Translations under genes and position numbers: made by a program
Part shown: piece after piece, positions 55,850 through 56,810 of the stretch
Numbering within the stretch: the stretch's first letter is position 1
Layout of the letters: each line of letters begins with the position of its first letter
Notes under the pieces: generated by a model
Database searches by the model: none
The model's input: only the letters and a program-made list of their open reading frames with translations
What the model was told of the DNA's origin: nothing
NCBI RefSeq assembly: GCF_028583425.1
Contig: NC_072801.1
Coordinates: forward strand, 20,790,001-20,854,000
Direction: 5' to 3'
Source: Eublepharis macularius
Lineage: Eukaryota > Chordata > Lepidosauria > Squamata > Eublepharidae
Length of the DNA stretch: 64,000 nt

Positions 55850-56810
55850 GATCCAGAGGAGTTAGCCGTGTTAGTCTGTAGTAGCAAAACAGAAAGTCCA
55901 GAAGCACCTTTAAGACTAACCAACTTTACTGTAGCATAAGCTTTCGAGAACCACAGTTCTGTTCGTCAGATGCATGGAGGGTAAGAAGAAACTGGTCAGA
56001 TATATAGGTGGAGAGGGGAGGGGGGAATAGATGCAATCAGGGAGTAGATGCAACCAGAAACAGCCTGCTCCAGGACAAACCTAAAGGAACTAACAACAGA
56101 ACACCACTGGTTGCCACCTACAGTTCCCAGCTCAAACCCATCCAACGTATCATCAGTGATCTATAACCCAATCGTGGAAAATGATGCCTCACTCTCACAA
56201 GCCCTGGGTGGAAGACCTCTTCTTGCCTACAGACAGCCCCCCAACCTTAAACGACGATGCCAGCTCTGCCCTCATATCTACCCAGGAAATACAATTACAG
56301 GACCCAATGGCGTCAACTACACTATCTCTGGCTCTTACAGCTGCTCATCCTCCACCGTGATATATGCCCTCATATGCCAACAATGTCCATCTGCTCTGTA
56401 CATTGGACAAGCCAGCCAACCTCTGCGCAAAAGAATAAATGGACACAAATCTTGACATTAAAAATGGCAACATCCAGAAACCAGTGGGAGAACACTTCAA
56501 TTTATCAGGACATTCCATCAAGGACTTAAAGTTCACTGTAGTTCAACAGAAACCTTTCAAAAACAGAATCCAACGGGAAGCTGCTGAATTGGAATTCATA
56601 TGTAAATTTGACTCAGTCAGACTTGGATTGAATAGGGACTATGAATGGTTATCTCATTATCAGAAGTAACTGATTTCATTATCAGAAGCAAACTGATCCC
56701 ATTATCAGAAGCTGATTGCATCTACTCCCCTCTCCACCTATGTATCTGACCAGTTTCTTCTTACTCTCCATGCATCTGACGAAGAGAATTGTGATTCTCG
56801 AAAGCAAATG
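55850..56810 (+). mobile_element. Penelope-like element, 5'-truncated copy with inverted hammerhead-bearing ends
   Basis: The left arm (55850 to about 56045) is a minus-strand terminal repeat and the right arm (about 56713-56810) the same repeat in plus orientation, so they form inverted ends. Between them, a plus-strand coding remnant shows a GIY-YIG endonuclease signature: 'YALICQQCPSALYIGQASQP' followed by Arg-Lys-Arg and Asn-Gly-His, a hallmark of Penelope-like retroelements. The reverse-transcriptase part is absent. Hammerhead-like cores lie at 55941-55969 (minus) and 56776-56803 (plus). The copy is broken and looks moderately old. Confidence 0.85.

What the first reader, a model, noticed from the sequence alone, without database searches (positions are those of the whole stretch)
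55850..56810. Penelope-like element with inverted, hammerhead-bearing terminal repeats
A GIY-YIG signature lies between two copies of one terminal repeat in opposite orientation, each with a CUGACGA-stem-GAAA core. PLEs are known to carry hammerhead ribozymes in their terminal repeats, and inverted arrangement is known for the group; an amniote copy with both arms recognisable is worth recording.
Basis: partly seen in the sequence, partly recalled or inferred. Interest (0 to 1): 0.7.

Follow-up and report, generated by a model that had tools for sequence, protein, structure and literature searches.

The report
Dead Penelope retroelement, hammerhead-bearing inverted ends
This is a broken, ordinary copy of a very common jumping gene (a Penelope-like element) in a reptile-like genome, but its many relatives in the same genome suggest how such elements come to carry mirror-image ends.

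Summary
Two arms of one repeat lie head to head (left 55849-56040, minus; right 56712-56811, plus), each with a CUGACGA-stem-GAAA hammerhead-like core, around a GIY-YIG remnant. It belongs to a Penelope-like element (PLE) family: relative L013 carries RT and GIY-YIG domains above Pfam cut-offs. The window copy is dead: no RT, broken frames, right end lost. Neither arm holds an intact hammerhead: the left has a C:C mismatch at the base of stem II, the right lacks the family's AGCU-U. Rfam finds no hammerhead in the element or in four relatives, and the family shows no covariation beyond shuffles.
Among 54 further copies, 15 are head-to-head with both outer ends readable; 12 of the 15 have target-site-duplication scores of 9 or more. 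In 15 of 15, one end carries the long PLE "tail" and the other stops about 40 nt earlier (under independence P = 3e-5). One insertion's arms match two source subfamilies. I read the mirror ends as two-sided target-primed reverse transcription, not self-priming. The copy is ordinary; the end rule is the useful part. A tail on one inverted repeat was already in print.

The parts
55849..56040 (-). Left, inverted arm: end of the 3' untranslated region, hammerhead motif and the long PLE tail (outer end at 55849)
   Evidence: blastn against the right arm and genomic loci
55849..55894 (-). Tail extension beyond the short start site (U index 147-192)
   Evidence: In the 15 clear inverted relatives short ends lie at 68-91 and long ends at 110-121 on the tail scale; this end is at 115
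55932..55975 (-). Left hammerhead-like motif; stem I GCAU/AUGC intact, stem II has a C:C mismatch at its base
   Evidence: Family covariance model 67 bits, E 2.5e-15; predicted fold
56041..56711 (+). C-terminal GIY-YIG endonuclease remnant and start of 3' UTR; the RT part is absent and the frame is broken
   Evidence: frames compared with L013
56712..56811 (+). Right, direct arm; cut off just after GAAAGC, without tail
56770..56815 (+). Right hammerhead-like motif; stem II intact, AGCU-U replaced by AGCA-A, stem I disturbed
   Evidence: Family covariance model 50.3 bits, E 7.9e-11
52554..52681 (+). Separate, single PLE arm remnant with a long-tail end

Best explanation
The feature is a 5'-truncated, decayed insertion of an abundant PLE. 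Most likely both strands of the cut target primed reverse transcription of PLE RNA. One cDNA began at the far end of the tail and stopped early, giving the left, inverted arm. The other copied the 3' UTR and the endonuclease end of the ORF, giving the right, direct part. The two were then joined internally. The right outer end was later lost, probably by deletion. The family's hammerhead-like motif lies just upstream of the two presumed RT start sites; its role is unknown. Shown here: the PLE domains of a relative, head-to-head arms, TSDs around most clear inverted relatives, one long and one short end in each, and two source subfamilies in one insertion. Inferred: the order of events, that the two end positions are RT start sites, any pairing of RNPs, and the deletion at the right end of the window copy.
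For: PLE identity: L013 has RVT_1 (E 8.8e-12) and GIY-YIG (E 1.4e-5), both above Pfam cut-offs. Single insertions: 15 copies are inverted with both outer ends readable; TSD score >= 9 in 12 of 15 (8, 4), against 7 of 1640 cross-paired flanks of the 41 copies. End rule: 15 of 15 have one long and one short end (8 long on the left, 7 on the right); expected mixed fraction 0.499, P 3.0e-5; 18 of 18 with three less clear cases, 3.7e-6. The idea came from the first four (note); the eleven clear cases found later all fit (4.8e-4). Inner junctions: in seven of the eight copies measured, the left arm and right part break 752-1689 nt apart on the reference. Two sources: in L015 the left arm matches group G1 and the right arm group G2 at 28 of 28 diagnostic columns; 8 leading columns look like an edge effect, leaving 8 substitutions and one 12-column indel. 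PMC11167929 reports two adjacent RT start sites and cleavage plus extension of both target strands (parts 1 and 2 of 4 read).
Against: The window copy has no TSD at score 7 or more, and its right end fits neither end position, so for this copy the mechanism is inferred from relatives. 26 of the 54 copies show no inverted arm, and only 6 of those 26 have a TSD score >= 9, so one-sided insertion or loss is common; three more (L054, L055, L061) run off the left of the stretch fetched. Three clear inverted copies (L040, L043, L047) lack a TSD score of 9. L015 has a complex centre with near-perfect palindromic pieces and may not be one simple event; its two groups were picked because they were nearest to its arms. 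A left arm's best match by bit score was its own right arm in only 5 of 15. PMC11167929 saw no difference in start site between strands. Four inverted copies (L030, L042, L050, L056) could not be scored. Copies were chosen by an endonuclease match, and ends were classed by eye and not blind.
Confidence: 0.75

Rival explanations
1. Self-priming: a cDNA folds back and copies itself, as proposed for rotifer Penelope on an antisense template (PMC3846280, Discussion read).
For: Palindromic junctions do occur: L057 has a 12-nt foldback around the hammerhead AAGCTT, L015 has near-perfect palindromic pieces, and L013 joins its arms through a palindrome.
Against: In seven of the eight copies measured the left arm and right part break 752-1689 nt apart on the reference, so the junction is not a foldback; the other seven clear copies were not measured this way. 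Arms of L015 match two subfamilies. Fold-back gives no reason for one long and one short end.
Confidence: 0.1
2. Two independent PLE insertions side by side or nested, giving inverted arms by chance.
For: Adjacent PLE pieces exist, for example in L030 and the two insertions in L053.
Against: TSD scores of 9 or more flank the outer ends of 12 of 15 clear inverted copies, and the end rule holds in 15 of 15.
Confidence: 0.07
3. Two-sided priming, but on one RNA read twice: first from the short start site, then from the long one, forcing one long and one short end.
For: Explains the end rule simply. In L028, L036, L051, L058 and L062 the two arms are 97.8-98.7% identical; in L058 the next best relative is only about 94-95%.
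Against: L015 arms match two subfamilies. cDNAs begun at the long site are not always the short ones: the part carrying the endonuclease has the long end in 7 of 15.
Confidence: 0.25
4. The right end of the window copy at GAAAGC marks RT starting on the 3' end of a hammerhead-cleaved RNA.
For: The arm stops about 2 nt from the cleavage position that I placed by hand (GAAAGCUU^AUGC).
Against: I saw no such outer end among the other 54 copies where the end was read. [quoted passage not shown] No TSD supports the end.
Confidence: 0.04

Closest known systems
PAc / Poseidon_Ac of Anolis carolinensis (PMC11167929, parts 1 and 2 of 4 read)
   Same: RT plus GIY-YIG, hammerhead motif in the pLTR, two adjacent RT start sites that define a tail, both target strands cleaved and extended in vitro
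   Different: PAc protein is active; the window copy is a fragment. I did not align the two families, and clade was not tested. The paper saw no strand difference in start site; here each clear inverted insertion has a different end position on each side
Penelope Pen2a_Av of the rotifer Adineta vaga (PMC3846280, passages and Discussion read)
   Same: Head-to-head inverted pLTR, tail optionally on one of the inverted pLTRs, TSD (9 bp there; matched stretches of 12-21 nt here, possibly with a few element bases)
   Different: That paper favours self-priming on an antisense template; seven of eight junctions measured here are not palindromic
Minimal PLE hammerhead ribozymes (Cervera and de la Pena 2014; Lunse 2017: not held, titles seen in the reference list of PMC7761336)
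   Same: Type I core without helix III; an AGCU self-complementary segment that could form stem III in a dimer (worked out by hand)
   Different: Activity untested; both window motifs are damaged

Membership tests
Penelope-like element | Reverse transcriptase domain | tested here: not met
   Absent from the window copy (truncated); present in relative L013, RVT_1 E 8.8e-12. Membership is claimed for the family; the copy belongs by descent
Penelope-like element | GIY-YIG endonuclease at the C-terminus | tested here: met
   Met through relatives: window frame alone is below the Pfam cut-off (E 0.042), but it is 66-91% identical over aligned stretches to the genomic copies listed, and L013 passes the cut-off (E 1.4e-5)
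Penelope-like element | pLTR, direct or inverted, with optional tail on one end | tested here: met
Penelope-like element | Target-site duplication | tested here: not met
   None in the window copy, whose right end is lost; score >= 9 in 12 of 15 clear inverted relatives and 6 of 26 simple ones
Penelope-like element | RT grouping with PLE and telomerase RTs in a tree | not tested
   No reference PLE proteins were at hand
Type I minimal hammerhead ribozyme | Core nucleotides CUGANGA and GAAA | tested here: met
   Both arms
Type I minimal hammerhead ribozyme | Intact stems I and II and A15.1-U16.1 | tested here: not met
   Left: C:C at base of stem II. Right: AGCA, stem I disturbed. 23 of 50 genomic motifs keep the family core and both stems
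Type I minimal hammerhead ribozyme | Match to an Rfam hammerhead family | tested here: not met
   None at E <= 10 in 55700-57000, nor in four relatives
Type I minimal hammerhead ribozyme | Covariation supporting the helices | tested here: inconclusive
   33 sequences, 10 pairs: no measure above shuffles; the structure does beat slid versions on cells paired
Type I minimal hammerhead ribozyme | Self-cleavage | not testable with these tools
   Needs an in vitro assay

The most novel reading that the evidence does not exclude
PLE insertion is a two-sided reaction by an asymmetric pair of RNPs: each target strand primes on its own RNA, one always at the far (long) start site and the other always at the near (short) one. 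This would explain both the head-to-head ends and the 'optional' tail. The dimer-prone hammerhead segment (AGCU) next to the start sites might hold the two RNAs together.
Probability: 0.45. Interest if true: 0.65.

Novelty: new member of a known kind. Interest (0 to 1): 0.4.

Why it matters
How PLEs integrate, and why their ends are so often inverted, is unsettled in the papers read. A genome with many copies allows the models to be compared by counting ends and TSDs. The rule that inverted insertions carry one long and one short end, and the one insertion whose arms match two source subfamilies, favour two-sided priming and give a prediction that can be checked in any PLE-rich genome and in the published in vitro system.

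Tried and rejected
Rfam search of the whole window at gathering scores (two tRNAs only), of the element at E <= 10 (no hammerhead) and of four relatives (no hammerhead). PDB sequence search of the endonuclease frame and of the RT of L013 (nothing convincing). Covariation inside the family (none beyond shuffles). Fold energies of four motifs: the expected shape, but not better than shuffles (z -0.39 to -1.11). TSD for the window copy (none at score 7 or more). The idea that short inverted arms stop at the hammerhead cleavage site: three inner ends (L042, L047, L057) lie near it, too few to claim. The idea that long-ended simple copies never have TSDs: broken by L059. Hidden short left arms in simple copies: of 27 copies scanned only L041 and L045 had one (no random control was run). 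Papers on PLE with twin priming (three listed, seen as listing only) and on PLE with lizard or gecko (12 of 16 listed, listing only).

Full report
What is there. The window lies in a 2.24-Gb genome held as 72 contigs; that it is a reptile is my impression from the repeats, not a result. At 55849-56811 two arms of one repeat lie head to head around a broken endonuclease remnant. The arms are 88-92% alike as reverse complements. The left arm runs minus from 56040 to 55849; the right runs plus from 56712 to about 56811. The pattern CTGAYGA-N-GAAA occurs three times in the window, at both arms and at 52555-52582, against 1.59 expected by chance, so the pattern alone would prove little. The case rests on relatives.

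Family. The endonuclease frame (P0001, 56048-56452) gives 292 matches at E <= 0.001 in the same genome, with 150 of 15,226 first-look candidates scored. A long relative, L013, has a reverse transcriptase and a GIY-YIG domain, both above Pfam cut-offs, and an inverted pLTR, a coding region with several stops and a direct pLTR within a 14-nt TSD. This makes the family a Penelope-like element. The window copy has lost the RT and its reading frame is broken; compare the frames.

Hammerhead motif. From 50 genomic motifs I drew by hand: stem I GCAU/AUGC, core CUGAYGA, stem II AGAGAA/UUCUC with a variable loop, GAAA, then GC and UU, no stem III; 23 of the 50 keep the core and both stems. AGCU is self-complementary, so a dimer could form stem III; the titles of two papers on PLE hammerheads, one naming dimers, were seen in a reference list, and the lack of helix III is stated in PMC6155905 (passage). 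A model built from 33 of 35 distinct genomic motifs hits both window arms strongly. This is homology. Within the family the helices show no covariation beyond shuffles, and fold energies are not unusual, so the ribozyme reading rests on the motif and on the literature. The left window motif has C:C at the base of stem II and the right has AGCA-A in place of AGCU-U, so neither is intact.

Ends. I read 53 loci from this genome (L009-L062 without L039, which only extends L036), holding 54 copies. They were taken from the list, first its top, then mostly copies with short open frames, then others; this is not a random sample. In the 15 clear inverted copies the outer ends fall in two separate groups on a common scale, 68-91 (short) and 110-121 (long). 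The raw table is not a clean histogram: it reads some ends twice, counts inner palindrome hits at 107-110, and some values include chance matches in the flank. The two positions fit the tail and the two adjacent RT start sites reported for the Anolis element PAc (PMC11167929, parts 1 and 2 of 4 read), though I did not align the two families.

Count of the 54 copies: 15 head-to-head with both outer ends readable; 3 less clear (L053 first insertion, L041 and L045 with very short left arms); 4 inverted but not scorable (L030, L042, L050, L056); 26 without an inverted arm (L024 among them carries an inverted internal piece) and 3 whose left side runs off the stretch fetched (L054, L055, L061), these 29 ending long in 15 and short in 14; 3 ending elsewhere (L016, L018, L044). 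Classification was by eye, not blind.

The rule. In 15 of 15 clear cases one outer end is long and the other short, in both orientations (8 and 7). With the long fraction seen in the 29 others (15 of 29) half should be mixed; the chance of 15 of 15 is 3.0e-5, and of 18 of 18 is 3.7e-6. I wrote the idea down after the first four; the eleven clear cases found later all fit (4.8e-4). For L036 I expected a short left end before fetching it, but wrote that down only afterwards. One more copy seen only in part (L005) also reads short/long and is not counted. TSD scores of 9 or more are found in 12 of 15 clear inverted copies, 6 of 26 simple copies, and 7 of 1640 cross-paired flanks of the first 41 copies.

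Mechanism. TSDs outside both arms indicate that most of the clear inverted copies are single insertions. In seven of the eight measured, the arms break 752-1689 nt apart on the reference, which does not fit fold-back self-priming, the model favoured for rotifers in PMC3846280 (Discussion read). Palindromic junctions do exist (L057, L015, L013). In L015 the left arm matches one group and the right another at all 28 diagnostic columns, so two RNA sources were probably used there; 8 of the columns sit at the alignment edge and should be discounted, and I chose the groups as the nearest relatives of each arm. In L028, L036, L051, L058 and L062 the arms are 97.8-98.7% alike, as expected if both RNAs come from one locus or if one RNA is read twice. 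Over all 15, a left arm's best match by bit score was its own right arm in 5; in L040 and L043 the two arms differ more from each other than from other copies, which age alone could explain. I favour priming on both target strands, probably from two RNAs. Why a different end position is used on each side is not known.

The window copy in this light. Its left end is long (55849). Its right end stops just after GAAAGC, matches neither end position and has no TSD; I think it was lost by deletion. It also lies about 2 nt from the expected ribozyme cleavage point; I saw no such end among the other copies, so I treat this as coincidence.

What is known already. PMC3846280 describes head-to-head pLTRs, a tail 'optionally present' on one of the inverted pLTRs, and TSDs (passages). 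PMC8969392 also mentions inverted pLTRs and short 3' extensions (passage). So a tail on one end is not new. The listings and the passages I read show no count of end pairs and no insertion with arms from two sources, but most subscription papers are not held, most listed papers were not opened, and supplements were not read. The copy is ordinary; the family test is the useful result.

Noticed in passing
L053:85-676: About eleven tandem 52-nt units, each holding one hammerhead motif, nearly all with decayed cores (CTGACAA, CTCAAAA), inside a short inverted PLE insertion.
   Followed up: partly
G000 C4:607262, C7:297949, C8:143437738, C10:96830245, C14:72608805, C20:305193: Six endonuclease matches with identical scores; five lie about 0.18-0.61 Mb from a contig end (C14 length not seen), which suggests spread by subtelomeric duplication.
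   Followed up: no
window 2945-3037, 18932-18975, 28390-28430, 45841-45930, 52554-52681: Further PLE remnants: single arms with a short or a long end, weaker motif hits and an endonuclease piece.
   Followed up: partly
L013:5101-5176: In the subfamily of L013 the 3' untranslated region starts with a palindrome of an antisense and a sense hammerhead-like motif, mostly with a mutated core.
   Followed up: partly
window 56997-57079: Frame beginning MPPGLPLFLLLIFLNHAEA followed by a GTAAGA donor looks like a signal-peptide exon about 190 bp right of the element.
   Followed up: no
L013:6107-6482: Two sub-threshold matches to the MIR1444 family (38.8 bits against a gathering score of 80), probably a repeat.
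   Followed up: no
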